A stretch of DNA of 64,000 nucleotides from Salinisphaera sp. LB1 (GTDB taxonomy: Bacteria; Pseudomonadota; Gammaproteobacteria; Nevskiales; Salinisphaeraceae): positions 2,542,001 through 2,606,000 of the forward strand of contig NZ_CP029488.1 in the NCBI RefSeq assembly GCF_003177035.1, given 5' to 3'. The first letter of the stretch is position 1; every line of letters begins with the position of its first letter. Below, piece by piece: positions 29,479-42,291 of this stretch. The translations under genes and the position numbers were made by a program. The notes beneath the pieces are model-generated. The model ran no database searches, was not told the DNA's origin, and saw only the letters and a program-made list of their open reading frames with translations.

Positions 29479-29778
29479 ATGGCCGATCTGGCAGATACTG
29501 CAAACGATCCGGAGTGGGAATCCAACAAGGCGGCGCTCGTGCGCCGGCTCAAGCGGATCGAGGGCCAGGTGCGTGGTCTGCAGGCGATGATCGAGCGCGA
29601 TGCCGAATGCGAGGATATTGCCGTGCAGATGTCGGCGGCCCGCAAGGCGCTGGATCGGACGTTCTACAACATGCTGTCCTGCGTGATCGAGCATGAGTTG
29701 AACTGTCACGGGCTGGACGCCGAGGATGCCCGCGAGCGGCTCAAGTACGCCACCGAACTGCTCGCGCGCTACGGCTGA
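29479..29778 (+). CDS. CsoR/RcnR-family sulfur- or metal-sensing repressor (CstR-like)
   Basis: A 99-aa all-helical DNA-binding repressor of the DUF156 family; core RRLKRIEGQVRGLQAMIERD. The conserved first Cys is kept (C44 in AECEDI). By alignment with E. coli FrmR, the position that holds the metal-ligand His in CsoR, RcnR and FrmR is Val69 here, and other thiols or imidazoles sit nearby (C68, H72, C76). That makes a copper sensor unlikely and fits a persulfide sensor like CstR, which uses two cysteines. Its neighbours are sulfide-oxidation genes, and a matching operator lies at 31923-31938. It ends 12 bp from the convergent yedE-like gene. Confidence 0.85.
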   Translation: MADLADTANDPEWESNKAALVRRLKRIEGQVRGLQAMIERDAECEDIAVQMSAARKALDRTFYNMLSCVIEHELNCHGLDAEDARERLKYATELLARYG

Positions 29779-29790
29779 GCACGGTTGGTC

Positions 29791-30201
29791 TCAACGTGCC
29801 CGCCAACCGGCGACACGGCCGCCGATAACCAGCGCGGCCACGAAGATCAATGCTTCGTGCGGGTTGAAGGTCAGTGCCGCCAATGCCGGGCCGGGGCAAT
29901 AACCGGCCAGGCCCCAGCCGATGCCGAACAGCGCTGCGCCCAGCGCCAGCCGGTGGTCGATATCGGTCGCGGTCGGCCAGTGCATGGCCGTGTCCGCCCA
30001 GGGGCGGCGCCAGCCGCGCAAGACGGCAAACGCCGGGACGGTCACCAGCAGTGCGCCCCCCATCACCAGCGCCAGGCTCGGATCCCAGCCGCCGACCAGA
30101 TCCAGGAATGCCAGGACCTTGTCCGGATCCGCCATATGCGACAGGCAGAGTCCGAAGCCGAAGACCAGGCCCGCCGCGATCGCGATCAGGTGCTGTTTCA
30201 T
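29791..30201 (-). CDS. YedE/YeeE-family sulfur transport protein, C-terminal half type
   Basis: A 136-aa membrane protein with about four membrane segments and the family motif GYCPGPALAAL. The start ATG at 30201 overlaps the stop of the preceding YeeE protein by 4 bp (ATGA), so the two are coupled and probably make one transporter, as in the PmpA/PmpB pairs. Family members move thiosulfate or other reduced sulfur; the exact substrate is not known here. The frame is open upstream past 30700 but only because the genes overlap; it is two genes, not a frameshift. Confidence 0.85.
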   Translation of the reverse strand: MKQHLIAIAAGLVFGFGLCLSHMADPDKVLAFLDLVGGWDPSLALVMGGALLVTVPAFAVLRGWRRPWADTAMHWPTATDIDHRLALGAALFGIGWGLAGYCPGPALAALTFNPHEALIFVAALVIGGRVAGWRAR

Positions 30202-30638
30202 GACGATACGCCCAGGCCGTGACGCAGGATGATGGCGGTGATGATGCCGCAGGCCATGAACACGGCCGTGGCCGTGAGCGAACGCTTCGACCGGCGGGCG
30301 ATGCCGCAGACGCCGTGGCCGCTGGTGCAGCCCGAGCCGAGTCGGGTGCCGGCGCCCACCAATAGCCCGGCGAGTATCAGCAGCCATGGCGGGAACCCAT
30401 GGCGAACCGGGATATCGCCGGGCCAGAGCGCCACATAGACCCCGGCTCCGGCGACCAGTCCGATGAGGAAGCTGGCCCGCCAGCCACGGCCCGACTCGGC
30501 TGAAAACAGGCCGTGGACCATGCCTGAGATGCCGGCGATGCGGCCCAGCCCGGCCATGAGCAGGACGGCACCGGCGCCGATGAGCAACCCGCCGCCGAGC
30601 GCGATGCCGGGGGTGAAGTTCGTGATGGGGGTCAACAC
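30198..30638 (-). CDS. YeeE/YedE-family sulfur transport protein, N-terminal half type
   Basis: A 146-aa membrane protein, paired with the downstream YedE-like gene. It has about four membrane segments and the motif [20 protein letters not shown], whose Cys residues are those implicated in sulfur passage in TsuA-type proteins. The start is a GTG at 30638 with AGAGGA about 5 bases upstream. It is 21 bp after the SQR stop, so SQR-YeeE-YedE form one operon. YeeE/YedE pairs are part of the bigR/blh sulfide operon in Xylella and Agrobacterium, which supports the functional reading. Confidence 0.88.
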
Positions 30639-30659
30639 GGCGATCCTCTTGCGTGATGG

Positions 30660-31898
30660 TCAGACGGTCAGGTCGGCCCGTGGCTTGGGTTTCGGCAGAG
30701 ACCACGGCTTGCCCTGGAGCATTACGTGCCAATACAGCCACGGGAAGAAGCGCGTCTTGAGGGGCCAGTAAATCCGGCGCGGCTGGGTCGGATCGAGCGG
30801 AAAGCTCGATACGACTTCGCCGCCGTAGCGGAACTCGGCCAGCAACATCCGGCCGTGGGCGACCGTCAGCGGACAGGCGCCGTAGCCGTCGTATTCCTGG
30901 GCGGTGGCGGCGGCACCCATGGCCTTGCGCAGCGCCGAGACCACCACCGGAAACTGCCGGCGTACGGCGGCCATGGTCTTGGCATTGGGCGTGTCGGTAC
31001 AGTCGCCCAACGCGAAGACGTTGTCGTAGCGCGTATGCGTGAGCCGGTTCCTGTCGACCGTCACCCAGCCGGCCTCCCCGGCCAGCGGGCTGTTCTTGAT
31101 GACATCGGGCGCAGACTGCGGCGGTACCACGTGCAGCATGTCGAAATCGGCGGTGACCGTACCGCCCTCGGTATCGAACGTCGCCTGCTGTGCGGGGCCG
31201 TCCACGGCCACCAGATTATGGCCGAACCGAGGCGTGGCGCCGTAGCTGGCGATGATCTTGTCCAGTTCGCGCGCGTAGGCGGGGACGCCGAACATGGCGC
31301 CGCCCTGGTTGTAGAAGTCGATGCTCGCCTTCACGCCGCGCCGGCGCAGGGTGTCGGCGGTCAGATACAGCGCCTTCTGGGGCGCGCCGGCGCATTTGAT
31401 CGGCATCGCGGGCTGGGTGAACAGGGCGTGGGCGCCTTCGCCCAGGCTTGTCGCCAGCTCGTGCGTATAGGGCGCCAGGTCATAGCGATAGTTCGAGGTC
31501 ACGCCGTTGGCGCCCAGGGTGTCGGTCAGCCCCTCGATGGCGTCCCAGTCGATCTGCAGGCCCATGGCGACCACGAGGTAGTCGTATGCCAGCGTCGTCC
31601 CGGAAGCCAGCGTCAGGCGATTGTGATCCGGATCGAAGCCGGCCACCGAGTCCTTGATCCAGGTGGCGCGATTCGGCATGACATCCGCGGTGCGCGCGCG
31701 CGTGTCCTCGGCGCGCATGTCGCCGCCGCCGACCAGTGTCCAGCCGGGCTGGTAATAGTGGGTTTCGCTCGGTTCGACGATGGCCACGTCGAGATCGGCA
31801 TCGGCTCGCAGCAGGGCCGCGGCCACTGGAATGCCTGCCGTGCCGCCCCCGGCGACCACCACGCGGTGTTTTTTCTGGTGTTCATCGTGGTCGCTCAT
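30660..31898 (-). CDS. sqr: Sulfide:quinone oxidoreductase, type II
   Basis: A membrane-associated FAD enzyme that oxidises sulfide to persulfide or sulfane sulfur and passes electrons to quinone. The 412-aa protein has an FAD-binding VVVAGGGTAGIPVA, HYYQPGWTLVGGG, and two catalytic cysteines, C169 in MPIKCAGAPQKALYL and C342 in YGACPLTVAHGR, which line up with those of human SQOR. The C-terminal KTRFFPWLYWHVMLQGKPW is the likely membrane anchor. The ATG at 31898 has AGGAG 7 bases upstream. It is first in a three-gene operon controlled from the divergent operator. Confidence 0.93.
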   Translation of the reverse strand: MSDHDEHQKKHRVVVAGGGTAGIPVAAALLRADADLDVAIVEPSETHYYQPGWTLVGGGDMRAEDTRARTADVMPNRATWIKDSVAGFDPDHNRLTLASGTTLAYDYLVVAMGLQIDWDAIEGLTDTLGANGVTSNYRYDLAPYTHELATSLGEGAHALFTQPAMPIKCAGAPQKALYLTADTLRRRGVKASIDFYNQGGAMFGVPAYARELDKIIASYGATPRFGHNLVAVDGPAQQATFDTEGGTVTADFDMLHVVPPQSAPDVIKNSPLAGEAGWVTVDRNRLTHTRYDNVFALGDCTDTPNAKTMAAVRRQFPVVVSALRKAMGAAATAQEYDGYGACPLTVAHGRMLLAEFRYGGEVVSSFPLDPTQPRRIYWPLKTRFFPWLYWHVMLQGKPWSLPKPKPRADLTV

Positions 31899-31914
31899 GC
31901 TCCGCTCCTGATGG

Positions 31915-31941
31915 TTGAAAGCATACCCCCGAGGGTATAAA
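31915..31941 (+). promoter_or_regulatory. Candidate promoter for the persulfide dioxygenase gene
   Basis: TTGAAA at 31915-31920 and TATAAA at 31936-31941 on the plus strand, spacing 15 (an ATAAAT one base later would give 16). The CsoR-type operator fills the spacer, as in known CsoR-controlled promoters. Confidence 0.5.
31923..31938. promoter_or_regulatory. CsoR/CstR-type operator
   Basis: ATACCCCCGAGGGTAT is a perfect inverted repeat (ATACCC, 4-base centre, GGGTAT). It is the operator type known for the CsoR family, in which C-tract and G-tract half-sites are flanked by AT. It lies between the divergent SQR and dioxygenase genes and overlaps candidate promoters on both strands. The repressor at 29479 is the obvious candidate to bind it. 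Confidence 0.75.
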
Positions 31942-31962
31942 TTAAATAAAAAGTATATGCAA
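31934..31962 (-). promoter_or_regulatory. Candidate promoter for the SQR operon
   Basis: On the minus strand TTGCAT (complement of 31957-31962) and TATACC (complement of 31934-31939) are separated by 17 bases. The -10 element overlaps the operator half-site, so repressor binding would block it. The surrounding DNA is unusually AT-rich for this genome. Confidence 0.5.
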
Positions 31963-31985
31963 ATAAGCAAAAGGCATATGTAGCT

Positions 31986-32003
31986 CACGACCCGTGGGTC
32001 GTG
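31986..32003. promoter_or_regulatory. Palindrome upstream of persulfide dioxygenase
   Basis: CACGACCC-GT-GGGTCGTG, two perfect 8-bp arms with a 2-base centre, ends 34 bp before the dioxygenase ATG. It lies downstream of the candidate promoter. It may be a second operator for another regulator or a hairpin in the mRNA leader. Confidence 0.5.
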
Positions 32004-32037
32004 CGACATCATATTCTCCGTGATCGAGGAACGTTCG

Positions 32038-32907
32038 ATGGCCAAGGCCAGCCCGGAAGTCGCAGGCTTCCACGATGACAAGACAGGTAGCGTGCAATAC
32101 GTCGTGATCGACCCTCAGACCGACCGGTGCGCGATCATCGATCCGGTCTGGAACTACGACGAGGCGTCGGCGCGAACATCCACAGTCTCGATCGACGAGA
32201 TCAGTGCCTTCATCGCCAGACGTAGACTCACGGTGGACTGGATTCTGGACACCCACCCCCATGCCGATCATTTCTCGGCCGGCGTGCTCCTGGGTGAGCG
32301 CTATGGTGCACCGCGCGCGATCGGCGAGAAGGTCGTCGAAGTGCAGAAACTGTGGCAGACGATCTACAACTTCGGTGCCGACTACGCGACTGACGGCCGG
32401 CAGTGGGACCGGCTGTTCGCCGATGGCGATGCGTTCAATGTGGGTGCGCTGGAAGGGCGTGTCATGTTCTCGCCCGGCCACACGCTGGCTTCGATCACCT
32501 ATGTGATCGGCGACGCGGCGTTCGTGCACGACACCCTGTTCATGCCCGACAGCGGCACCGCGCGGGCGGATTTCCCCGGCGGCGACGCGCGCACGCTGTA
32601 CCGCTCGATACAGCGTATTCTCGAGCTGCCGGATGCCACGCGCCTGTTCGTGGGCCACGATTACCGGCCGGGCGGGCGCGAGGCGCGCTGGGAGTCGACC
32701 GTGGCCGAGCAGCGGGCGCGCAACAGCCATCTGCGTGACGCGCCCGGCGAGGACGCGTACGTCGCCATGCGCGAGGCGCGCGACGCTACGCTGCCGCTGC
32801 CGGCTTTGATGCTGGCCGCGTTGCAGGTCAACACGCGCGGCGGGCGTTTGCCCGAATCCGAGGATGATGGCCACTCGTATCTGAAGATCCCGCTCAACCG
32901 GTTCTGA
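32038..32907 (+). CDS. pdo: Persulfide dioxygenase (ETHE1-like, metallo-beta-lactamase fold)
   Basis: An iron-dependent enzyme that oxidises glutathione persulfide to sulfite and glutathione. The 289-aa protein shows the metal motif DTHPHADHFSAG (H73, H75, D77, H78), H148 in FSPGHTLASI, D165 and H207 in LFVGHDYRPGG, in the order typical of ETHE1 and bacterial PDO. The ATG at 32038 has CGAGGA 7 bases upstream. It is divergent from the SQR operon, with a shared control region. It would take the persulfide made by SQR. A second copy lies at 39888. Confidence 0.9.
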   Translation: MAKASPEVAGFHDDKTGSVQYVVIDPQTDRCAIIDPVWNYDEASARTSTVSIDEISAFIARRRLTVDWILDTHPHADHFSAGVLLGERYGAPRAIGEKVVEVQKLWQTIYNFGADYATDGRQWDRLFADGDAFNVGALEGRVMFSPGHTLASITYVIGDAAFVHDTLFMPDSGTARADFPGGDARTLYRSIQRILELPDATRLFVGHDYRPGGREARWESTVAEQRARNSHLRDAPGEDAYVAMREARDATLPLPALMLAALQVNTRGGRLPESEDDGHSYLKIPLNRF

Positions 32908-33020
32908 GCCCGGTTGCCGCGGCCATGGTCGGCGCCTGCGACAATGCGTCGCGACCGGCCGGATCTACGACCATGGTATTATCTTGCATTGGCGAAACCT
33001 TTAGAAAGGGTTGATGCGAT

Positions 33021-34457
33021 ATGGAAAGTGCAACCGCGATCATGCTGTCCCGTCTGGATTTTGCGTGGGTGGCGAGCATGCACTTTCTCTACCCACCGCT
33101 GACCATCGGCCTGGCGCTGCTGTTGTTTTTGGCCGAATGGCGGTGGCTGCGTACCGACGACGACACGTGGTACCGGCTGACCCGGTTCTTCGAGAAGCTG
33201 TTCATCATCAATTTCGGCGCCGGGGTTGCGACCGGCGTCACCATGGAGATGGCGTTCGGCATTCTGTACGGTCCGTTCTCCCAGGCCGCCGGGCCGTACT
33301 TCGGCAACGTGCTCGGCTACGAGACGATCACCGCCTTCATGTACGAGGCCGGCTTCATCGGCCTGATGATCTTCGGCTGGGGCAAGATCAGCCGCCGCAT
33401 GCATCTGTTCTCGACCTTCAACGTGATGCTGTCGTCGACCCTGTCGGCCTTCTGGATCATGAACGCCAATTCGTGGATGCAGACGCCGACCGGCGTGGAA
33501 CTGCGCGACGGCATCTTCCACGTGACCGACTGGGGCGCGGCGATTTTCAACCCCAATTTTCTGCCGTCGTTCGCCCATATGTGGGTGGCTGCGGTCGAAC
33601 TGGCGCTGTTCGTGGTGATCGGCGTCAGTGCCTGGTACTTGCTCAAGAAACGGCATGAAGACATGTTCAGCCGCCCGCTGGCCTATGCGTTGGTGGCGGC
33701 GGCCCTGGTCGCCCCGCTGCAGGTATATCTGGGCGACGATCTCGGCCAGGTGGTCGCCGAGCACCAGCCCGCGGCGCTGGCCGCGATGGAAGGCCATTAC
33801 CACACCTACGCGCCGGACGGCAGCGTGAACACCGGTTGGCACATCGTGGCCTGGCCGGACGACGCGGCCGGCGAAAACCGCTGGGCGCTCACCATCCCGC
33901 ACGCGCTCAGCCTGATCGAGACACATACCTGGAACGGCAAGGTGCCGGGCCTGGACCAGACCCCCAAGGCCAACCGGCCGCCGGTATGGATCCCGTTCTA
34001 CGGCTTTCGTGTGATGCTGGCAATCGGTTTCTTCCTCGTGCTGGTGGCGTTCTGGGGCGTCTGGATGGTTTATACCCGACGCCTGTTCTCGGCCGGTGGT
34101 CGCGCGCGCCGGTGGTTCCTGCGAACGGCCGTGTTCAGCGCGTTCCTGCCGTTTCTGGCGATATGGACCGGCTGGTGGACGCGCGAGGTCGCGCGCCAGC
34201 CCTGGCTGGTCGACGGCATGATGCGCATCGAACAGGGCGTGAGCCGCATGACCGTGGCCGAGGCCGCCATCTGGCTGGTCGGCTTCATTATCTTTGAACT
34301 CGTGGTGTGGTTTTTCACCTGGTACTTCATGGCCAAGGTGATCCGCCAGGGCCCCGACCTCGAAGCGCCGGTGCTACGCGGCGGGGACGATGCGATCGGG
34401 CATCTCGAATCCCAGCCGGGCGCTGACGACGCGCGCCCGGCCTACGAACGGCCGTAG
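33021..34457 (+). CDS. cydA: Cytochrome bd ubiquinol oxidase subunit I
   Basis: Subunit I of a bd-type quinol oxidase, 478 aa, with about nine membrane segments. Haem ligands are visible: H21 in MHFLYPP (b595/d region), H186 in SFAHMW and M332 in YGFRVML (b558 pair), and Glu residues in GYETITAFMYEAGF. The Q-loop is short, as in the cyanide-insensitive CIO type. The usual GRQPW motif reads ARQPW at 391-395. cydB follows after 12 bp. bd oxidases conserve energy modestly but resist sulfide and cyanide. Confidence 0.95.
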   Translation: MESATAIMLSRLDFAWVASMHFLYPPLTIGLALLLFLAEWRWLRTDDDTWYRLTRFFEKLFIINFGAGVATGVTMEMAFGILYGPFSQAAGPYFGNVLGYETITAFMYEAGFIGLMIFGWGKISRRMHLFSTFNVMLSSTLSAFWIMNANSWMQTPTGVELRDGIFHVTDWGAAIFNPNFLPSFAHMWVAAVELALFVVIGVSAWYLLKKRHEDMFSRPLAYALVAAALVAPLQVYLGDDLGQVVAEHQPAALAAMEGHYHTYAPDGSVNTGWHIVAWPDDAAGENRWALTIPHALSLIETHTWNGKVPGLDQTPKANRPPVWIPFYGFRVMLAIGFFLVLVAFWGVWMVYTRRLFSAGGRARRWFLRTAVFSAFLPFLAIWTGWWTREVARQPWLVDGMMRIEQGVSRMTVAEAAIWLVGFIIFELVVWFFTWYFMAKVIRQGPDLEAPVLRGGDDAIGHLESQPGADDARPAYERP

Positions 34458-34469
34458 AGGAAAGACGTC

Positions 34470-35513
34470 ATGCCTGCGGATATCGGAGAACTGCACCTGT
34501 TCGTGATCTATGCGTGGTGGTTCGCGCTGGGTTTCAGCCTGCTGCTCTACATCATGCTCGACGGGGCGGATCTGGGTGCCGGGGTGTTCTCGCTGTTCGT
34601 GCGGGACCCGGATGAGCGCGGCGGCATCATGGCCGCCATGGCCGGCACCTGGGATGCCAACGAAACCTGGCTGGTGGTGGCCGGCGGCGTGTTGTTCGGT
34701 ACGTTTCCGCTGGTTTACGGCTCCGCCTTCCACTATCTGATGCTGCCGCTGATCATCGTGCTGTGGAGCATCATGATGCGCGCCATCGCGCTCGAGTTCC
34801 GGCATCATTCCGAGCGCAGTGCGCATCTCTGGGATGGCCTGTTCGGTGTCGCCAGCCTCACCACGCTGTTCTTCGCCGGCATGGCGATGGGCGCGGTGCT
34901 CGAAGGCTATCCGCTCACCGAGGGCAACGTGCCCACCTATGCCGGCGGCATGTTTCGTTTCATCAGCCCGTTCAGCCTGTGGACCGGCGTCGGCGCCGTG
35001 GTGGCGGCATCCCTGGCCGGCAGCCTGTTCATCCGGGCCCGGTTCGAGCGTACCGAGGCCATCCGCCGGCATGCCGCGCGCTGGGTCGATCGTTCGTTCT
35101 ATGCCTCGCTTGTGGCGGTGGTGGTGACCGTGGTCTGGAGCCTGCTGAAATTCCCCTGGGCGGCGGACAAATGGCTGGGGCCCTATTTCTGGGTCTGGGG
35201 CCTGGTGGCGCTGGCCGTGGTCTATGCCGTGGTCCGCATGCGGCGTTCGTCGCGTCACGGTCGTGATCTGTTCGCCATTCTGTGGCTGAACGCGGCCATC
35301 GCCATCATGTGGCTGGCGATGATGTTCACCATGCTGCCGTGGCTGGTGCCCAACACCTGGACGATCTACGACGCGGCCAGCCCGTCGGTGTCGCTGGTGA
35401 CGTTCACCATGGCCATGGGCGGCTTCCTGCCGGTGATGCTGATCTACAACTGGTATCAGATCTGGGTGTTCCGGGCCCGCATATCCAAGCTGACCGGCTA
35501 CGGTCACCACTGA
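34470..35513 (+). CDS. cydB: Cytochrome bd ubiquinol oxidase subunit II
   Basis: The partner subunit of CydA, 347 aa, with about eight membrane segments and the family landmarks LLYIMLDGADLGAGVFSLF, GTWDANETWLV, the segment FPLVYGSAFHYLMLPLII and FTMAMGGFLPVMLIYNWYQ. A GAGGAAAG ribosome binding site precedes the ATG. The stop overlaps the next ATG by one base (TGATG). Confidence 0.96.
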   Translation: MPADIGELHLFVIYAWWFALGFSLLLYIMLDGADLGAGVFSLFVRDPDERGGIMAAMAGTWDANETWLVVAGGVLFGTFPLVYGSAFHYLMLPLIIVLWSIMMRAIALEFRHHSERSAHLWDGLFGVASLTTLFFAGMAMGAVLEGYPLTEGNVPTYAGGMFRFISPFSLWTGVGAVVAASLAGSLFIRARFERTEAIRRHAARWVDRSFYASLVAVVVTVVWSLLKFPWAADKWLGPYFWVWGLVALAVVYAVVRMRRSSRHGRDLFAILWLNAAIAIMWLAMMFTMLPWLVPNTWTIYDAASPSVSLVTFTMAMGGFLPVMLIYNWYQIWVFRARISKLTGYGHH

Positions 35514-35746
35514 TGGGCCGGGCGCGTCCCGAATCGCAGGGCCGCCGCGGCTGGGCCTGGTGGCCGGTGGCGCTGGCCGCTGCATTTCTCGTGCCACCGG
35601 TGGCAGGGCTGGTTCTTATCGCACGGTTCTTCGGCGGCCTGGGCCCCGGTCTGTGGCTGATGGCGGGCGTGGTGTTTCTGTTCGCGGTCACGCTCGTGGT
35701 GGGCCTGGCGCGCGCCGAGCGGGCGGCGCCGAAGTCGCGCCGCTGA
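35513..35746 (+). CDS. Small two-helix membrane protein in the cyd operon
   Basis: A 77-aa protein with two hydrophobic segments (about 17-40, WPVALAAAFLVPPVAGLVLI, and 46-66, LWLMAGVVFLFAVTLVVGLA) and basic ends. Its ATG overlaps the cydB stop by one base, so it is translated with cydB. It is longer than CydX (about 37 aa, one helix) and I do not recognise the family. By position it may be a bd-oxidase accessory or assembly subunit; that is inference. Confidence 0.7.
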   Translation: MGRARPESQGRRGWAWWPVALAAAFLVPPVAGLVLIARFFGGLGPGLWLMAGVVFLFAVTLVVGLARAERAAPKSRR

Positions 35747-35772
35747 GCCGCGGAGCGCGGCGTCAGTTGCCG

Positions 35773-37554
35773 ATGTCGGCCAAGACTTCGAACAGCACGC
35801 GGCGTGGCCCGGAAGGATGGCTGCGCGCGCACCTGGCCGGCCATCGGGCGTTGTTGTTCGGCGCGGTCGCGGTTGGGTTGATCGATGCGCCGCTATTGAT
35901 CGCCCAGGCCTGGCTGCTGGCGCTGATCATCAATGCCGTGGCCATAGACGGGCAGGGACTGGACGCCGTCATGCCCTGGTTGTGGTGCCTGCTCGGTGTG
36001 TTCGCGGCCCGCGTGTTGACGGGCATACTGCGCGACGGGCTGGCATTCGAAGGCGCGGCCCGGATCAAGCATCGCCTGCGCGAGGCCCTGTTCGAGCACT
36101 GCATCGCACTCGGGCCCGACTGGGCGCGCGGCGCCCGCAGCGGCACGGTCTCGCATCTGCTGGCCGATGCGATCGAGGCCATGGACCGCTACTACCGCGA
36201 TTATCTGCCGCAGACGATGCTGGCGGCGGTGCTGCCGATCGTATTGTTGTTGGTGATCTTTCCGAACGACTGGGTTTCGGGGTTGATCCTGTTGATCACG
36301 GCCCCGCTGGTGCCGTTTTTCATGGTCCTGATCGGCAAGGGAACGGAAGCGCTCAACCAGCGCCAGTGGCGCCGGCTCGCACGCCTGAGCGCGCATTTCT
36401 TCGATGCCATCGAAGGCCTGACCACGCTCAAGCTGTTCGGCGCCAGCCGGCGCGAACTGGATGCCGTGGCCGCCATGTCGGAAGGGTATCGGCGCGAGAC
36501 GCTGGCGGTGCTGCGGCTGGCCTTCGTGTCGTCGCTCATCCTCGAATTCCTGACCACGCTCGGCATCGCCATGGTCGCGGTGTATATCGGGTTCCGGCTG
36601 TACTACGGTGAGATGGCGTTCTGGCCCGGGCTGTTCGTGCTGCTGCTCGCGCCCGAGTTCTATCGCCCGCTGCGCGACATGGGCGCGCAATACCATGCGC
36701 GCATGGAGGCGATCGGTGCTGCCGAGGGGCTGATCGAGGTCTTCGCGCGTCAGCGCCCCGAAGACACGGCCAGCCGCGCGGCGGGTGAGGCGATCTCTCG
36801 CCCCGAACGTATCGAATGCCGCGATCTGGCGTTCGCTTATGCCGACGGCGCGCCGGTGTTCAGCGGCGTGGATCTCGCGCTGCGCCGCGGTCGCCGCATT
36901 GCCCTGGTCGGCCCCAGCGGGGCAGGCAAGACCACGCTGGCGCATCTGCTGCTGGGATTTCTGCGGCCGCAGGCCGGCGCTATTCGGGTCGACGGCGTCG
37001 ATCTCGCAAGCCTGCCACGCAGCGTCTGGCTGCAGCAGGTCGCCTGGGTGCCCCAGCGCCCGACGCTGTTCCACGGCACCCTCGCCGACAATATCCGGCT
37101 CGGCTGTGCCGACGTCGATGACGCCGCGGTGGCCCGGGCCGCGCGCCAGGCCAACGCTGACGCCTTCATCGAGGCACTGCCCGACGGCTACGAGACCGTG
37201 ATCGGCGATCGTGGCCAGGGCCTGTCGGGTGGGCAGATCCAGCGCATCGCGCTGGCGCGGGCTTTTCTCAAGGACGCGGCGCTGGTGGTGCTGGACGAGC
37301 CGAGCGCCAGTCTCGATCCGGCCAGCGAAGCGGCGATCACCGACGCCGTGGCGCGGCTGGCCGCGGATCGCATGCTGCTGATCATCGCCCATCGGCTGGA
37401 TACGGTGCGCGAGGCCGACGAGATCCTGCTGCTGGCCGACGGCGCGATCGCGGAGCGCGGCCGGCACGACGCGCTGATGGCCGCCGATGGCCGCTATGCG
37501 CGGCTCTGGTCGCTTTACCGTGCCGACGATGCCTTCAGCGGGGTTCGGTCGTGA
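35773..37554 (+). CDS. cydD: Heterodimeric ABC exporter subunit CydD
   Basis: CydDC exports cysteine and glutathione, or in recent work moves haem for cytochrome bd assembly. This 593-aa half has six membrane segments and an ATPase domain with Walker A GPSGAGKTTLA, signature LSGGQIQRIALARAF, Walker B ALVVLDEPSASLD and the switch IIAHRLDTV. The ATG at 35773 (MSAKTSNSTRRG) is preferred; a TTG two codons earlier is possible. It follows the small membrane gene and its stop overlaps the cydC start. Confidence 0.93.
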   Translation: MSAKTSNSTRRGPEGWLRAHLAGHRALLFGAVAVGLIDAPLLIAQAWLLALIINAVAIDGQGLDAVMPWLWCLLGVFAARVLTGILRDGLAFEGAARIKHRLREALFEHCIALGPDWARGARSGTVSHLLADAIEAMDRYYRDYLPQTMLAAVLPIVLLLVIFPNDWVSGLILLITAPLVPFFMVLIGKGTEALNQRQWRRLARLSAHFFDAIEGLTTLKLFGASRRELDAVAAMSEGYRRETLAVLRLAFVSSLILEFLTTLGIAMVAVYIGFRLYYGEMAFWPGLFVLLLAPEFYRPLRDMGAQYHARMEAIGAAEGLIEVFARQRPEDTASRAAGEAISRPERIECRDLAFAYADGAPVFSGVDLALRRGRRIALVGPSGAGKTTLAHLLLGFLRPQAGAIRVDGVDLASLPRSVWLQQVAWVPQRPTLFHGTLADNIRLGCADVDDAAVARAARQANADAFIEALPDGYETVIGDRGQGLSGGQIQRIALARAFLKDAALVVLDEPSASLDPASEAAITDAVARLAADRMLLIIAHRLDTVREADEILLLADGAIAERGRHDALMAADGRYARLWSLYRADDAFSGVRS

Positions 37555-39272
37555 ACGACTGGCGCCGTCTGCTGGCGCTCGCGCGGCCCTATCGCGGCAT
37601 GCTGTGGCTCGGTATCGGGCTGACCACGGCCGTGGTGCTGGCCAACGTCGCGCTCATGGCGCTCGCCGGATGGTTCATCACCGGCATGGCGCTGGCCGGT
37701 CTCGGGCTCGGCACGATCAATTATTTCGCGCCGGCGGCCGGCATCCGCGGGCTGGCGATCGTGCGGGCGATGGGGCGATACCTTGAACGCCTAGTCACGC
37801 ACGATGCCACGCTGCGACTGCTGGCGCGGCTGCGCGTGACCTTCTATGCCGGGCTCGAACCGCTGGCGCCGGCCGGCCTGCAACGCTATCGCGGCGGCGA
37901 CCTGCTCAGTCGCATGCGCGCGGACATCGACACGCTCGACAACTTCTACCTGCGCGTGATCGCGCCGAGCCTGGCGGCGGCAGCGAGCATCGTGCTCGTC
38001 AATGGCTTCGCCGCCTGGTTCAGCCCGGCGGTGGCACTGGTCAATGCGATCGGCCTGCTCGCGGCCGGATTCGTGCTGCCCTGGGCCGCCTATCGGCTGA
38101 GTCGCTCGGGCGGGGCCGAGCGCCGCCGCGTGCTGGCGGACCTGCGCGCGACCGGGGCCGACAGCATTCGTGGCCTGGGCGAACTCTGGGTGTATCAGGC
38201 CACCGCACGCCAGGCCGGGCGCATCCGTGGCCTGTCGCGCCGGCTGCTGGCGGTGCAGCGACGCGACGCCTGGCGCGAGGCGATCGCCGACGCGGCATCG
38301 GCGGCCATCGCCCGCGCGACGCTCTGGGTGGTCCTGGTCGCGGCAATACCGCTGGTCGGGCAGGCCGCGATCGACGGCCCGGCACTGGCCATGCTCGTGT
38401 TTCTGGTCATGGCGAGCTTCGAAGCCGTGGCCCCCTTGCCGGCGGCGTTTCGTGCGCTGGCCGAGACACGCGCCGCGGCCCGGCGGATCTTCGAGATCAT
38501 GGACGCCGAGCCGGCCGTGTCGGACCCGCCGGCCGATGCCGCGCCGCCGCAGCGTTTCGATGTCGTGCTGCGCGGGGTATCGCTGCGCTACGAGGAGGCC
38601 GCGTCATGGGCGCTGGACGGCGCGAATCTCACGCTTGCGCCCGGCCGCACGCTGGGGCTGGTCGGCGCCAGCGGTGCCGGCAAGACCAGCGTCGTGAACG
38701 CGATCCTGCGGTTCTGGCCGTATCAGGCCGGGCGGGTGGACATCGGCGGTACGGCGATCGAGCGCTATGCGGCCGGGACGGTGCGCGGCTGGTGTGCGGT
38801 GGTCAGCCAGCACACGCATCTGTTCAATGCCAGCGTGGCCGATAACCTGCGTATCGCCCGGCCTGAGGCGGGCACGGACCAAATGCAGGCGGCCCTGGCG
38901 CAGGTCGGCCTGTCACCGCGGGTGGCCGCCATGCCGCAGGGGCTGGATACATTCATCGGCGAGGCCGGCGCGCGCCTGTCCGGCGGCGAGGCGCGCCGGC
39001 TGGCGATTGCCCGCGCCGTGCTCAAGGACGTGCCGATCCTGATCCTGGACGAGCCCACCGAGGGGCTCGACGCGCGATCCGAGGCCGATGTGCTGGCGGC
39101 GTTGTCACCATTGATGGCAGCGCGGACGACGCTGGTGATCACGCATCGGCCGTCGGTGCTGCGTTATGTGGACGAGATCGCCGTGATCGAAGCCGGCCGG
39201 ATCGTGGAGCAGGTCGATCCGCGCGCAGCCACCGCCGAGGCGCGGTTCTGGCGCCATCTGCGCCTCGCCTGA
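37551..39272 (+). CDS. cydC: Heterodimeric ABC exporter subunit CydC
   Basis: The second half of the CydDC exporter, 573 aa. It has six membrane segments (LALARPYRGMLWLGIGLTTA onward), Walker A GASGAGKTSVVN, signature LSGGEARRLAIARAV and Walker B ILILDEPTEGLDA. The start is a GTG at 37551 overlapping the cydD stop (GTGA). The order cydA-cydB-orf77-cydD-cydC keeps oxidase and assembly factor in one operon. Confidence 0.93.
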   Translation: MNDWRRLLALARPYRGMLWLGIGLTTAVVLANVALMALAGWFITGMALAGLGLGTINYFAPAAGIRGLAIVRAMGRYLERLVTHDATLRLLARLRVTFYAGLEPLAPAGLQRYRGGDLLSRMRADIDTLDNFYLRVIAPSLAAAASIVLVNGFAAWFSPAVALVNAIGLLAAGFVLPWAAYRLSRSGGAERRRVLADLRATGADSIRGLGELWVYQATARQAGRIRGLSRRLLAVQRRDAWREAIADAASAAIARATLWVVLVAAIPLVGQAAIDGPALAMLVFLVMASFEAVAPLPAAFRALAETRAAARRIFEIMDAEPAVSDPPADAAPPQRFDVVLRGVSLRYEEAASWALDGANLTLAPGRTLGLVGASGAGKTSVVNAILRFWPYQAGRVDIGGTAIERYAAGTVRGWCAVVSQHTHLFNASVADNLRIARPEAGTDQMQAALAQVGLSPRVAAMPQGLDTFIGEAGARLSGGEARRLAIARAVLKDVPILILDEPTEGLDARSEADVLAALSPLMAARTTLVITHRPSVLRYVDEIAVIEAGRIVEQVDPRAATAEARFWRHLRLA

Positions 39273-39351
39273 GGCGAGTGCGGCGGCGGATCGAGGCCGC
39301 ACGCGCTGGCCCCGCGACGCCCCCAATGTTTATAAGTGCCGCCCGGCGCTG

Positions 39352-39801
39352 TCACCGGAGCTTGTTTCGCGTGGCCTCGTACAACGGCGATTGTGGGTCA
39401 AGGCCGGTGCTCAGGCCGATGTCGAGTGCGCGCTCGGCGCTTTCACCGTGCAGGTGGCAGGCACGGTAGGCCATGAGCGCGCCGACGCGATTGCTGCTGG
39501 CACAGTGCACGAGCGCCGGCGTGCCGCCGGCCGCGGCGAGGGCGTCGTCGAGGTCGCGGGCTTGGCGATCGTCGATGTCATTCGCCCCCGCAACCGGGAT
39601 ATTGACGTAACGCATGCCGGCGTCGGCCACTACGCGGGCTTCGTCGAATTCGTCGAATTCGCCGGCCGGGCGCAGGTTGACCACGGTCTTGACCCCGGCT
39701 TGGCCCGCGGCGACGAGTTGTGCCCGGTTCGGTTGCCCCGCGGTCACGATATCGGCGCCGAAGTGGCGGGCGTTCTTCAGATCATTCGGGTAATCGGACA
39801 T
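39352..39801 (-). CDS. DUF442 (Blh-type) sulfurtransferase / phosphatase-like protein
   Basis: A 149-aa protein of the TIGR01244 / DUF442 family with a protein-tyrosine-phosphatase loop H99-C100-A-S-S-N-R105. In Xylella and Agrobacterium the same domain is fused to a persulfide dioxygenase in Blh, where it acts as a sulfurtransferase in sulfide detoxification. Here the dioxygenase is a separate gene just upstream, 86 bp away on the same strand. The ATG at 39801 has AGGA about 8 bases upstream; an in-frame ATG at 39831 is less likely. Confidence 0.85.
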   Translation of the reverse strand: MSDYPNDLKNARHFGADIVTAGQPNRAQLVAAGQAGVKTVVNLRPAGEFDEFDEARVVADAGMRYVNIPVAGANDIDDRQARDLDDALAAAGGTPALVHCASSNRVGALMAYRACHLHGESAERALDIGLSTGLDPQSPLYEATRNKLR

Positions 39802-39887
39802 GGCGCGATCCTGGTGCTCTGTCGGTTGCAACGATAGAGGGCTGCCGGCGGTTTCGGCCGACAGCGCGAAGCCTGCGGCGCCCCAGA

Positions 39888-40772
39888 TTACAAGGTATCC
39901 AGTGGAATTTTCAGGTAGTGCACGCCGTTGGATTCTTCCGGCGGCAGATGGCCGGCCCGCATGTTGACCTGAACCGAGGGCAGAATCAGCCGCGGCATGC
40001 CGAGCGTGGCGTCGCGCGCCTCGCGCATGGCGACGAATGCGTCTTCGGTCACGCCTTCATGCACATGGATATTGTGGCGCCGCTGTTCGCCCACGGTCGT
40101 TTGCCAGCGATATTCGCGCCGTCCCTCGGGCAGATAGTCGTGGCACAGGAATACACGGGTTTCGTCGGGCAGGGCCATCAGCTTCTGGATCGAGCGATAC
40201 AGCGTGCGTGCATCGCCGCCGGGGAAATCGCAGCGCGCCGTGCCATAGTCGGGCATGAACAGGGTGTCGCCCACGAACACCGCGTCGCCGATGATATGGC
40301 TCATGCAGGCCGGGGTATGGCCGGGCGTATGGATGGCCCGGGCCGTTATCGAGCCGATCGTGTATTCGACGCCGTCCGCGAACAGCTGATCGAACTGGCT
40401 GCCATCGCGTTCGAACTCGGTGCCGGCGTTGAAGATCTTGCCGAATACATCCTGCACGGTCCGGATATGTTCGCCGATGGCGAGTTTGCCGCCCACCTGC
40501 TGCTGGATCCATGGCGCGGCCGACAGATGATCGGCGTGGGCGTGGGTTTCCAGCAGCCAGTCCACGGCGAGGCCCCGTTCGCGTACGGCGTCGACGATGC
40601 GCTGGGCGTTGTCATGACTGATGCGCGCGGCATTGGGCTCGTAATCGAGCACGGAATCGATGATCGCGCAGTGGTCGGTGGCGGGATCGTTGACGATATA
40701 GCTCACGGTATTCGTGGCCGAATCGAAGAAGGCCTCGACCTGGACCTCTTCGGTGAGTGCCGACGTCGTCAT
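39888..40772 (-). CDS. Persulfide dioxygenase-like metallo-hydrolase (second copy)
   Basis: A 294-aa ETHE1/Blh-type protein, paralogous to the one at 32038. The metal motif is ETHAHADHLSAA (H77, H79, D81, H82); IHTPGHTPACMSH, GDTLFMPDYGTARCDFPGGD and FLCHDYLPEG follow. GGAG is placed about 8 bases before the ATG. It lies upstream of the DUF442 gene, so the two probably form an operon equal to a split Blh. The extra length at the start (TTSALTEEVQVEAFF) matches the Blh group rather than the first copy. Confidence 0.87.
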   Translation of the reverse strand: MTTSALTEEVQVEAFFDSATNTVSYIVNDPATDHCAIIDSVLDYEPNAARISHDNAQRIVDAVRERGLAVDWLLETHAHADHLSAAPWIQQQVGGKLAIGEHIRTVQDVFGKIFNAGTEFERDGSQFDQLFADGVEYTIGSITARAIHTPGHTPACMSHIIGDAVFVGDTLFMPDYGTARCDFPGGDARTLYRSIQKLMALPDETRVFLCHDYLPEGRREYRWQTTVGEQRRHNIHVHEGVTEDAFVAMREARDATLGMPRLILPSVQVNMRAGHLPPEESNGVHYLKIPLDTL

Positions 40773-40906: not shown

Positions 40907-41776
40907 TCAGAGTCCGCTGGCGGGTTGCCGGCGCGGCGACGTGCTGCGCTCGACCGGTTGTTCGGCGGCAGCGGGCGCCTGCTGCTGCGGTCGCTTGACG
41001 GTCGGGGAGATCTGCGGACGATCGCCGGCCTGGTCGTTGGTCTGGTCATTGGCCTGGGCATTGCTGCCGGGGTGTGCCGCGATCTCGGCCAGCTCGTTGA
41101 GCGTGGCGGGTGGCAGATTGCCGGTCAGCGCATAGTCGCGCCCCTGCGCCTGCCAGCGGGCCAGGGCAACGCCCGAGGGCGAGATCATGTCGGGTGCGCC
41201 CTGTGTGGTGCCGGACTCCGCACGTGTATAGATCGTCACCCGTTTGCCGGCTGCATTACGATATTCATAGGCGGTGAGCGACTCGCCGCCCGCCGTGGTG
41301 ACGACGTGTCGATCGTTAAAGCGATAGCCCGCGCGCGACAGATCGGGATGCGCCGGCCGGCTGGGGCTGCGCGCGGCCGTGTCGACCGCGGGCTGGCGAT
41401 CGGCGAGACGCGCGACCTGCTGGCCGAACGTGTTCGGCACGACGCCCGGCGGCGTGGATGTCGACGCCAGCCCGCGCAGCCACCAGCCGCCGGCGGCCGA
41501 CAGGCCGATCACCGCGACCAGACCGGCGCCCGCCAGCCAGCTTGCGGGTGACGCATTGTGGCCATGCAACAAGCGCGGCGGAATGGGTTCGTCGAGCACT
41601 GGATCGTAGCGCTGCGCGAGCGCCAGGTCGTGCTCGGCGTCGCGCGCGGCGCGCTCGGCGATGCGCGGGTTGGCGGCCAGATAGCGTTCGATCGCCGCGG
41701 TGCCGGTGATGCGGTGGCCGGCGCGGTAGTAAGTCACGCACTGTTCGTAGTCGATCGCCACGGCGGTTGCTCTCAT
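40907..41776 (-). CDS. Probable membrane anti-sigma factor
   Basis: A 289-aa protein with an N-terminal cytoplasmic region of about 75 aa, one membrane segment (ASWLAGAGLVAVIGLSAAGGW) and a periplasmic domain with a beta-rich stretch (VVTTAGGESLTAYEYRNAAG) and a Gln/Pro-rich tail. Its ATG overlaps the sigma-factor stop by 4 bp. That layout is typical of ECF sigma/anti-sigma pairs. It does not carry an obvious zinc motif (HxxxCxxC), so it is not a ZAS-type protein as far as I can see. The signal is unknown. Confidence 0.7.
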   Translation of the reverse strand: MRATAVAIDYEQCVTYYRAGHRITGTAAIERYLAANPRIAERAARDAEHDLALAQRYDPVLDEPIPPRLLHGHNASPASWLAGAGLVAVIGLSAAGGWWLRGLASTSTPPGVVPNTFGQQVARLADRQPAVDTAARSPSRPAHPDLSRAGYRFNDRHVVTTAGGESLTAYEYRNAAGKRVTIYTRAESGTTQGAPDMISPSGVALARWQAQGRDYALTGNLPPATLNELAEIAAHPGSNAQANDQTNDQAGDRPQISPTVKRPQQQAPAAAEQPVERSTSPRRQPASGL

Positions 41777-42291
41777 CTTCGCGCCGCGGCCAGCGGCGGC
41801 GTGTCTGGCTCGGCCTGCATCAGCTCGTTGAGCTGCTGACGTGCCCGCGACAGGCGCGAGCGGAAGGTGCCGACGCGAATACCGAGCATGCGCGCACCAT
41901 CGCGATAGCTGGGCTGTTCGAGCGCGGCCAGCATCAGGATGGCGCGATGCTCGGGCGACAGACGGTCCATCGCGGCCAGCACGTCGCGACAGTGCAGCCT
42001 CAGGCCGTTCGACGCGCTGCGGTCGCGCGGGTCGAGCGCGACCGTATCGAGCGCTATCAGTTTCTCGCGGTCGCGCGTGGGCGCGGGGTGGCCGTCCAGA
42101 TACAGCCGATACAGCACACGGAACAGCCAGCCGCGCAGCCGGCCGTGCGGGCGCCAGAGATGACGCTTGCGCCAGGCGCGTTCCAGCGTGTCCTGCACCA
42201 GGTCGTCGGCGGCTTCCCTATCCCGCAGCAATGCGCGCGCATAGCGCCGCAGATGGGGGACTTCGGCTTCGATCATGCCGGGTTCGATCAC
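41773..42291 (-). CDS. ECF-family RNA polymerase sigma factor
   Basis: A 172-aa group 4 sigma factor. Region 2 reads LRRYARALLRDREAADDLVQDTLERAW with GRLRGWLFRVLYRLYLD, and region 4 reads LSPEHRAILMLAALEQPSYRDGARML followed by GIRVGTFRSRLSRARQQL. The start could be the ATG at 42291 or the one at 42276 (MIEAEVPHL). It is coupled to the anti-sigma gene downstream. The subgroup is not clear. Confidence 0.92.
   Translation of the reverse strand: MIEPGMIEAEVPHLRRYARALLRDREAADDLVQDTLERAWRKRHLWRPHGRLRGWLFRVLYRLYLDGHPAPTRDREKLIALDTVALDPRDRSASNGLRLHCRDVLAAMDRLSPEHRAILMLAALEQPSYRDGARMLGIRVGTFRSRLSRARQQLNELMQAEPDTPPLAAARR

What the first reader, a model, noticed from the sequence alone, without database searches (positions are those of the whole stretch)
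29479..40772. A single locus joining sulfide oxidation, persulfide removal and a sulfide-tolerant oxidase
Seen: CsoR-family repressor, YeeE/YedE pair, type II SQR with both catalytic Cys, persulfide dioxygenase, cydA-cydB-orf77-cydD-cydC, DUF442 protein, second dioxygenase. Known: SQR gives electrons to quinone; cytochrome bd resists sulfide, which blocks haem-copper oxidases; the DUF442-dioxygenase pair and YeeE/YedE belong to the bigR/blh operon. Inference: the locus is a self-contained unit in which SQR electrons leave through the bd oxidase, and the dioxygenases and DUF442 protein handle the persulfide. I do not know of this exact gene set with cyd inside it being described.
Basis: partly seen in the sequence, partly recalled or inferred. 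Interest (0 to 1): 0.75.

Follow-up and report, generated by a model that had tools for sequence, protein, structure and literature searches.

The report
Sulfide-oxidation genes beside a bd oxidase
A salt-loving bacterium keeps its genes for breaking down toxic sulfide next to genes for a respiratory oxidase of a kind expected to keep working in sulfide, and DNA signals in its relatives suggest that one sulfur-related switch can control both.

Summary
The named genes are all there, in a Salinisphaera chromosome, but not as one operon: csoR>, <yedE-like<yeeE<SQR, PDO1>cydA>cydB>orf77>cydD>cydC>, <DUF442<PDO2. In the genus SQR and PDO1 stay divergent neighbours; cyd is the variable part. Between them lies an inverted repeat, ATACCC-N4-GGGTAT, found there in 9 of 9 genomes with this csoR and at 0 of 3 SQR/PDO1 loci that lack csoR or are a second copy. 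The same repeat (exact in two genomes, one mismatch in two) lies just upstream of a different cydAB (CydA about 40% identical) in four sister genomes. So sulfide genes and a bd oxidase were probably coupled more than once, by position or by shared operator. In this window cydA also seems to have its own promoter with a RegA/RoxR-like palindrome. A direct CsoR link to a bd oxidase was not seen in the ten literature searches made. All regulation is predicted from sequence; none was measured.

The parts
29479..29778 (+). csoR: CsoR/DUF156-family repressor; cysteines C43, C67, C75
   Evidence: Pfam PF02583 E 2e-21; C43 and C75 in 9 of 9 genus orthologs, C67 in 6 of 9
29791..30201 (-). YedE-like membrane protein (DUF6691)
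   Evidence: PF20398 E 4e-43
30198..30638 (-). YeeE-like membrane protein, overlaps the previous gene
30660..31898 (-). sulfide:quinone oxidoreductase, type II-like, Cys169 and Cys342
31923..31938 (.). predicted CsoR operator ATACCCCCGAGGGTAT, 24 bp before the SQR start and 99 bp before the PDO1 start; overlaps -10-like hexamers on both strands
   Evidence: only site with up to 1 mismatch in 64 kb, 0.08 expected; in 9 genomes; distances; hexamers read by eye
32038..32907 (+). PDO1, persulfide dioxygenase of the Blh MBL type
   Evidence: NF040641 E 1e-150, model positions 138-423 of 423; metal motif HPHADH
32937..32982 (+). predicted own promoter of cydA: palindrome TGCGAC-N5-GTCGCG (32937-32953), then 23 bp, then TATTAT (32977-32982) preceded by TGG
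   Evidence: same layout in C41B8, degraded in Q1T1-3 (spacing counted by eye); the palindrome alone is not rare in this GC-rich DNA
33021..34457 (+). cydA, short Q-loop bd oxidase subunit I
   Evidence: PF01654 E 4e-149
34470..35513 (+). cydB
   Evidence: PF02322 E 2e-68
35513..35746 (+). orf77, 77-aa membrane-like protein between cydB and cydD
   Evidence: similar frames at that place in C41B8 and Q1T1-3
35773..37554 (+). cydD
   Evidence: TIGR02857 over its cut-off
37551..39272 (+). cydC
   Evidence: TIGR02868 over its cut-off
39352..39801 (-). DUF442 (BLH phosphatase-like/sulfurtransferase) protein
   Evidence: PF04273 E 1e-7
39888..40772 (-). PDO2, second Blh-type dioxygenase, 51-52% identical to PDO1
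   Evidence: NF040641 E 2e-118
40907..42291 (-). anti-sigma-like protein (40907-41776) and ECF sigma-like protein (41773-42291) upstream of PDO2 on the same strand
   Evidence: named by eye, no family search; same order before PDO2 in C41B8

Best explanation
A sulfide-defence island in which a CsoR-family thiol repressor, through one operator overlapping both promoters, holds down the divergent units SQR-yeeE-yedE and PDO1 until persulfide oxidises its cysteines. SQR oxidises sulfide and reduces quinone; PDO1 oxidises the glutathione persulfide. cydABDC, downstream of PDO1 on the same strand, supplies a bd quinol oxidase. Here it is probably fed in two ways: read-through from the CsoR-controlled PDO1 promoter, and its own promoter driven by a RegB/RegA (RoxS/R)-type pair that reads the quinone pool which SQR loads. 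In sister species the same coupling is made by a CsoR operator placed directly before a different cydAB. Shown by sequence: gene content, operator conservation and its co-occurrence with csoR, operators before cydAB, presence of a RegB/RegA-like pair. Inferred: binding, persulfide sensing, read-through, quinone sensing, sulfide resistance of this oxidase.
For: Operator in the SQR/PDO1 gap in 9 of 9 genus genomes with csoR and absent from the 3 other SQR/PDO1 loci (G003 and G005, no csoR; G007's second copy). 20 exact sites in 14 genomes against 1 for the reversed control pattern: 9 at SQR/PDO1, 2 upstream of cydA (G011, G012), 1 upstream of yeeE and 1 upstream of an MBL gene (G002), 3 upstream of a 228-aa gene (G003, G007, G008; a response regulator where tested, beside COX1 in G003 and G008), 4 not explained. 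Site ends 65 bp before cydA in G011 and G012; a 1-mismatch site ends 31 bp before cydA in G008 and G007; a TATAAT/TATACT-like hexamer overlaps it as at PDO1, read by eye. Chance of two or more such hits near 16 cydA genes about 6e-6 (16 is my round number). PDO1-cydA gap 113 bp, 117 bp in C41B8, no terminator-like site listed in the window's gap. Palindrome and TATTAT upstream of cydA; RegB-like kinase with GGATNPF and a RegA-like regulator next to it. A. [quoted passage not shown]
Against: No expression or binding data. Cysteine spacing of this CsoR (43 to 75) is not that of CstR, so the signal may not be persulfide. The four operator-cydA cases are two near-identical pairs, hence two events; five other cydA upstream regions of the genus read locally had no site, one of them a second copy in G008. 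The palindrome upstream of cydA is not rare (6 matches with up to 1 mismatch in the window, 5.6 expected). In Q1T1-3 the gap is 970 bp and PDO1 is of a diverged lineage. In G002 one piece of this cydA type has no PDO1, csoR or site before it. No operator lies before csoR. The RegB model also finds other kinases (12 of 14 control genomes ring, 1 over the cut-off) and the hit here is below its cut-off. Co-occurrence p = 0.018 ignores relatedness.
Confidence: 0.6

Rival explanations
1. cydABDC is a redox-regulated bd oxidase that merely landed beside PDO1; it is controlled only by its own RegA/RoxR-type promoter and not by sulfide.
For: Own promoter-like layout in G000 and C41B8 and, degraded, in Q1T1-3 where csoR is missing; no CsoR site between PDO1 and cydA; 73 of 80 loci of this CydA family show no SQR or PDO in the flanks held, 25 of the 80 flanks being short.
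Against: A CsoR-type site before other cydAB genes of the genus; same strand and short gap after PDO1 without a terminator-like site; further cyd-sulfide adjacencies elsewhere.
Confidence: 0.25
2. The CsoR-family protein senses a metal (copper or nickel) or an aldehyde, and the sulfide genes respond to that stress.
For: CsoR/RcnR/FrmR family; NCBIfam matches are RicR, FrmR and RcnR, all far below cut-off; the best PDB matches bear the name copper-sensing CsoR.
Against: Its sites stand at SQR, PDO and YeeE/YedE genes; 29 residues after C43 there is Glu, and 25 residues after it Val, in the window protein (that these are the copper positions is recalled).
Confidence: 0.12
3. The repeat ATACCC-N4-GGGTAT is part of a core promoter or another regulator's site, not a CsoR operator.
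For: It overlaps -10-like hexamers; exact sites also occur in G003 and G013, which have no match to this csoR; G179 (L222) has a CsoR of the same cysteine pattern and no exact site in the stretch.
Against: Present with csoR and absent without it at SQR/PDO1; also beside SQR in G020, which has a CsoR gene in the locus, and in G077, whose 5.7-kb contig shows none; form agrees with the TAC/GTA half-sites 4 bp apart of TTHA1953 (PMC10318464, passages).
Confidence: 0.12

Closest known systems
A. baumannii FisR/BigR sulfide response with CydAB (PMC7315123)
   Same: SQR, PDO, YeeE/YedE; cydAB induced by sulfide; SQR and CydAB linked through quinone in the authors' model
   Different: by locus tags cydAB lies apart from the FisR and BigR operons; no sulfur regulator of cydAB is named in the passages seen; regulators are FisR and BigR, not CsoR
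S. aureus cst operon under CstR (PMC5480029, PMC8148161)
   Same: CsoR-family repressor of SQR and persulfide dioxygenase
   Different: CstR cysteines C31/C60; the string cyd does not occur in the main text of PMC5480029; authors think CstR directly regulates a single operon
T. thermophilus TTHA1953 (PMC10318464)
   Same: CsoR-family protein with two cysteines repressing sulfur oxidation genes, TAC/GTA inverted repeats 4 bp apart
   Different: controls Sox genes far from its own gene; no bd oxidase in the passages seen
bigR/blh operon (mostly recalled)
   Same: DUF442 and MBL dioxygenase, YeeE/YedE
   Different: here DUF442 and MBL are separate genes; the regulator in the cluster is CsoR-type, and I noticed no ArsR-type gene among the frames read
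RegB/RegA (RoxS/R) control of bd/CIO oxidases
   Same: RegB-like kinase with GGxxNPF; palindrome like SpdR's CTGCGAC-N5-GTCGCAG (PMC4830024); RegA activates cydAB in B. pseudomallei (PMC8191878)
   Different: kinship of SpdR with RegA is recalled; kinase is below the family cut-off; no test in this organism

Membership tests
CstR-type persulfide sensor | CsoR/DUF156 family | tested here: met
   PF02583 E 2e-21
CstR-type persulfide sensor | two conserved cysteines 29 residues apart (C31/C60) | tested here: not met
   C43 met; 29 residues on there is Glu; Cys instead at +24 (6 of 9) and +32 (9 of 9). Outside the genus the G020 CsoR has +24 and not +32, the G179 one has both
CstR-type persulfide sensor | persulfide reactivity and loss of DNA binding | not testable with these tools
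   needs protein
CsoR copper sensor | Cys-His-Cys copper site (recalled) | tested here: not met
   Val and Glu at the recalled second and third positions
type II SQR | two conserved redox cysteines and closest kinship to mitochondrial SQOR | tested here: met
Blh-type persulfide dioxygenase | MBL domain with HxHxDH | tested here: met
Blh-type persulfide dioxygenase | fused N-terminal DUF442 domain | tested here: not met
   PDO1 and PDO2 match only model positions 138/139-423 of NF040641
short Q-loop bd oxidase (CIO-like) | no C-terminal Q-loop insert of the E. coli type | tested here: met
   query 314-320 faces residues 310-381 of E. coli bd-II
sulfide-resistant oxidase | activity in sulfide | not testable with these tools
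   not shown for this subtype in what I read
RegB/RegA-controlled promoter | RegA-type palindrome and RegB/RegA pair in the genome | tested here: inconclusive
   both present in form, but palindrome not rare and kinase below the cut-off
single sulfide operon including cyd | one strand, one transcription unit | tested here: not met
   four blocks of alternating strand

The most novel reading that the evidence does not exclude
In Salinisphaera a CsoR-family dithiol repressor of a new cysteine layout directly controls a bd-type terminal oxidase together with SQR and persulfide dioxygenase, so that sulfane sulfur itself selects the respiratory oxidase; the link was built at least twice, once by an operator before one cydAB and once by placing a different cydABDC behind PDO1.
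Probability: 0.45. Interest if true: 0.65.

Novelty: new variant of a known kind. Interest (0 to 1): 0.48.

Why it matters
Sulfide blocks haem-copper oxidases, so a cell that lets SQR load its quinone pool needs an outlet that still works. That cydAB rises with sulfide is known, but in the passages I read no sulfur sensor was shown to act on cyd directly. Here the sequence offers a concrete candidate sensor, operator and promoter set for that step, in species where the link can be compared with and without gene linkage. It also gives a testable CsoR variant with unusual cysteine spacing.

Tried and rejected
Rejected: one operon (strands alternate). Rejected: a CsoR site between PDO1 and cydA in the window (none with up to 1 mismatch). 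Rejected as proof: the TGCGAC-N5-GTCGC palindrome alone; only its equal spacing to TATTAT in G000 and C41B8 counts, and in Q1T1-3 the second half is degraded. Led nowhere: sigma-70 scan (1 found, 1.5 expected) and terminator scan (8 found, 6.4 expected); paper searches. Weak: exact operator sites in G000:C1:2619652, G013:C20, G011:C77 and G012:C12; those in G013, G011 and G012 touch called coding sequence, and I take all four as chance. Not done: a search from the cyd side with other cyd subfamilies beyond the genus, a structure prediction of CsoR, an RNA-family search.

My note said that no site lies between csoR and cydA in L143; that held for exact sites only, and searches showed the one-mismatch site.

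Literature: all 10 searches used. Seen as passages only: PMC7315123, PMC10318464, PMC5492768, PMC8191878, PMC4109375, PMC3440390, PMC4830024, PMC5480029, PMC8528912, PMC10205796, PMC8148161. In the listings (one search found 0 papers) I saw no title or abstract opening on a cyd-SQR/PDO cluster; of the 42 papers, 20 were listed, and nearly all of those were seen as listing only. Subscription journals are largely missing from the library.
Full report
Observation. The window is part of a 4.14 Mb single-contig chromosome (G000:C1:2542001-2606000). Every gene in the finding is present, but in four blocks of alternating strand: csoR plus; yedE-like, yeeE and SQR minus; PDO1-cydA-cydB-orf77-cydD-cydC plus; DUF442-PDO2 minus. 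The flanking genes look like ssb and uvrA upstream and miaB downstream (named by eye). PDO2 lies behind what look like ECF sigma and anti-sigma genes, an order kept in C41B8.

The enzymes. SQR aligns best with mitochondrial SQOR and keeps both cysteines, 169 and 342. PDO1 and PDO2 are Blh-family dioxygenases without the fused DUF442 domain; both have HxHxDH. CydA is the short Q-loop kind; a second, longer CydA (529 aa) sits elsewhere in the genome next to its own cydDC. orf77 is a small membrane-like protein between cydB and cydD, also in C41B8 and Q1T1-3.

Conservation in the genus (14 genomes held). An SQR match of 58% or more is in 11 of 14 and a strong PDO1 match in 12 of 14; in those 11 the two are divergent neighbours, though in G002 the neighbour of PDO1 is an SQR fragment. 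This cydA type is in 4 of 14 (G000, G001, G002, G006). It follows PDO1 in G000, G006 and G001. In G002 it is in two pieces at contig ends, and the piece whose upstream is held has no PDO1 before it. In G001 the SQR, yeeE, yedE and csoR genes are missing from the place, the gap to cydA is 970 bp and PDO1 belongs to a diverged lineage, although UvrA puts G001 near G000 (92%, against 87% for G004). In G008 another cydAB, its CydA 39-41% identical to the window's, lies behind csoR: PDO1< >SQR>yeeE>yedE <csoR >cydA>cydB. In G004 a cydDCAB of the long CydA type is 13 kb from PDO1. There the neighbour of PDO1 is a DsrE, thioredoxin-like and DsbD block instead. So the sulfide core is the stable part and oxidases come and go beside it.

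The operator. Between SQR and PDO1 stands ATACCCCCGAGGGTAT (31923-31938). It is the only match with up to one mismatch in the window (0.08 expected). The form ATACCC-N4-GGGTAT occurs in that gap in 9 of 12 aligned loci. Those 9 lie in the 9 genomes with this csoR; the 3 without it are G003 and G005, which have no match to csoR, and G007:C13, a second SQR/PDO1 copy in a csoR genome. By eye it lies between a -35 and a -10 of PDO1 and overlaps a -10 of SQR. Two exact sites end 65 bp before cydA in G011 and G012, where cydA is on another contig than SQR; a one-mismatch site ends 31 bp before cydA in G008 and G007, between csoR and cydA. In all four a -10-like hexamer overlaps the site as at PDO1. 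CydA is 100% identical within each pair, so I count two events. Five other cydA upstream regions of the genus had none with up to one mismatch (L182-L185 and L187); in L144 and L186 the cydA start is at or beyond the contig end and cannot be judged. The form is also beside SQR in G020 and G077, outside the genus.

The repressor. All 9 orthologs keep C43 and C75; C67 is in 6. Best PDB matches are 7mq1 and 7mq3, whose second cysteine, 29 residues after the first, faces a Glu here; they are named copper-sensing CsoR in the file, and that they are CstR-like is recalled. So it is a CsoR-family protein with two cysteines 32 residues apart that do not vary in the genus, neither the CstR nor the recalled copper layout. 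Outside the genus the G179 protein has all three, the G020 one only the first and +24. Persulfide sensing is inferred from its targets.

The promoter of cydA in the window. The 113-bp PDO1-cydA gap (117 bp in C41B8) holds no terminator-like site in the scan. It has TGCGAC-N5-GTCGCG, 23 bp, then TGG-TATTAT. C41B8 has the palindrome intact at the same distance; Q1T1-3 has a degraded second half. I scored 79 further upstream stretches (G014 and L033-L110); two (L088, L100) were cut wrongly because cydA runs off the contig; among the other 77 none had 10 or more of the 12 palindrome letters near that place, and the two with 10 (L082, L089) had them about 250 bp up (many starts there are approximate). 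The palindrome alone is not rare. It matches the motif of SpdR, CTGCGAC-N5-GTCGCAG (PMC4830024); that SpdR is a RegA relative is recalled. The genome has a RegB-like kinase (142 bits, next best 83; cut-off 350) with GGATNPF and a RegA-like regulator next to it; the model also rings in 12 of 14 control genomes, 1 over the cut-off. GGxxNPF as the quinone motif is from PMC8191878.

Beyond the genus. The scan for this CydA gave 87 relatives, of which the best 80 were kept. In 7 of 80 an SQR or PDO was found in the flanks; 55 of the 80 have 9 kb or more on both sides. The 7 are two Salinisphaera, Acidocella aromatica (PDO-TauE-MarR-cydABDC), and four Acidithiobacillus loci, two of them cydA-cydB-SQR where the SQR of one was tested and matches the solved A. 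ferrooxidans type (E 3e-193). The class search found SQR in 31 of 321 genomes; 29 of these are outside the genus and gave 32 loci, some on short contigs; one (G295) has SQR and PDO divergent from a sigma-54 activator, then PDO-cydA-cydB. Adjacency is thus uncommon but repeated, with different SQR types, cyd types and regulators. Acidithiobacillus has many cyd and sulfur genes, so some of its cases may be chance.

How it works, and what is known. SQR to quinone to bd oxidase, with PDO clearing persulfide, is the model already drawn for A. baumannii, where sulfide induces cydAB (PMC7315123). New here, as far as the searched library shows, are the physical cluster, the conserved CsoR-type site at both SQR/PDO1 and cydAB, and the cysteine layout. 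All of it is prediction from sequence.

Noticed in passing
window 31986-32003: Second inverted repeat CACGACCC-GT-GGGTCGTG in the PDO1 leader; inverted repeats of other sequence lie at a similar place in G010, G011 and G012.
   Followed up: no
L143 1459-1474, L178 1414-1429, L179 5516-5531: Exact CsoR-type site upstream of a 228-aa gene (a response regulator in G008) near a COX1 haem-copper oxidase gene in G008 and G003; same site and gene length in G007; G003 has no match to this csoR.
   Followed up: partly
L076 and L081: Acidithiobacillus cydA-cydB-SQR gene string; the L076 SQR is of the A. ferrooxidans type.
   Followed up: partly
L046 6733-15949: Acidocella aromatica PDO-TauE-MarR-cydABDC on one strand.
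   Followed up: partly
L223 4259-14265: G295: SulP, SQR, PDO divergent from a sigma-54 activator, then PDO-cydA-cydB-OsmC.
   Followed up: partly
L155: G002: an SQR fragment beside PDO1, a full-length SQR nearby, an IS1595-type transposase, and three exact operator sites including ones upstream of yeeE and of an MBL gene.
   Followed up: partly
window 40907-42291: ECF sigma-like and anti-sigma-like genes upstream of PDO2 on the same strand, also in C41B8; may control PDO2.
   Followed up: no
L156: Q1T1-3: the PDO upstream of cydABDC belongs to a diverged lineage although the position is the same, which suggests replacement.
   Followed up: partly
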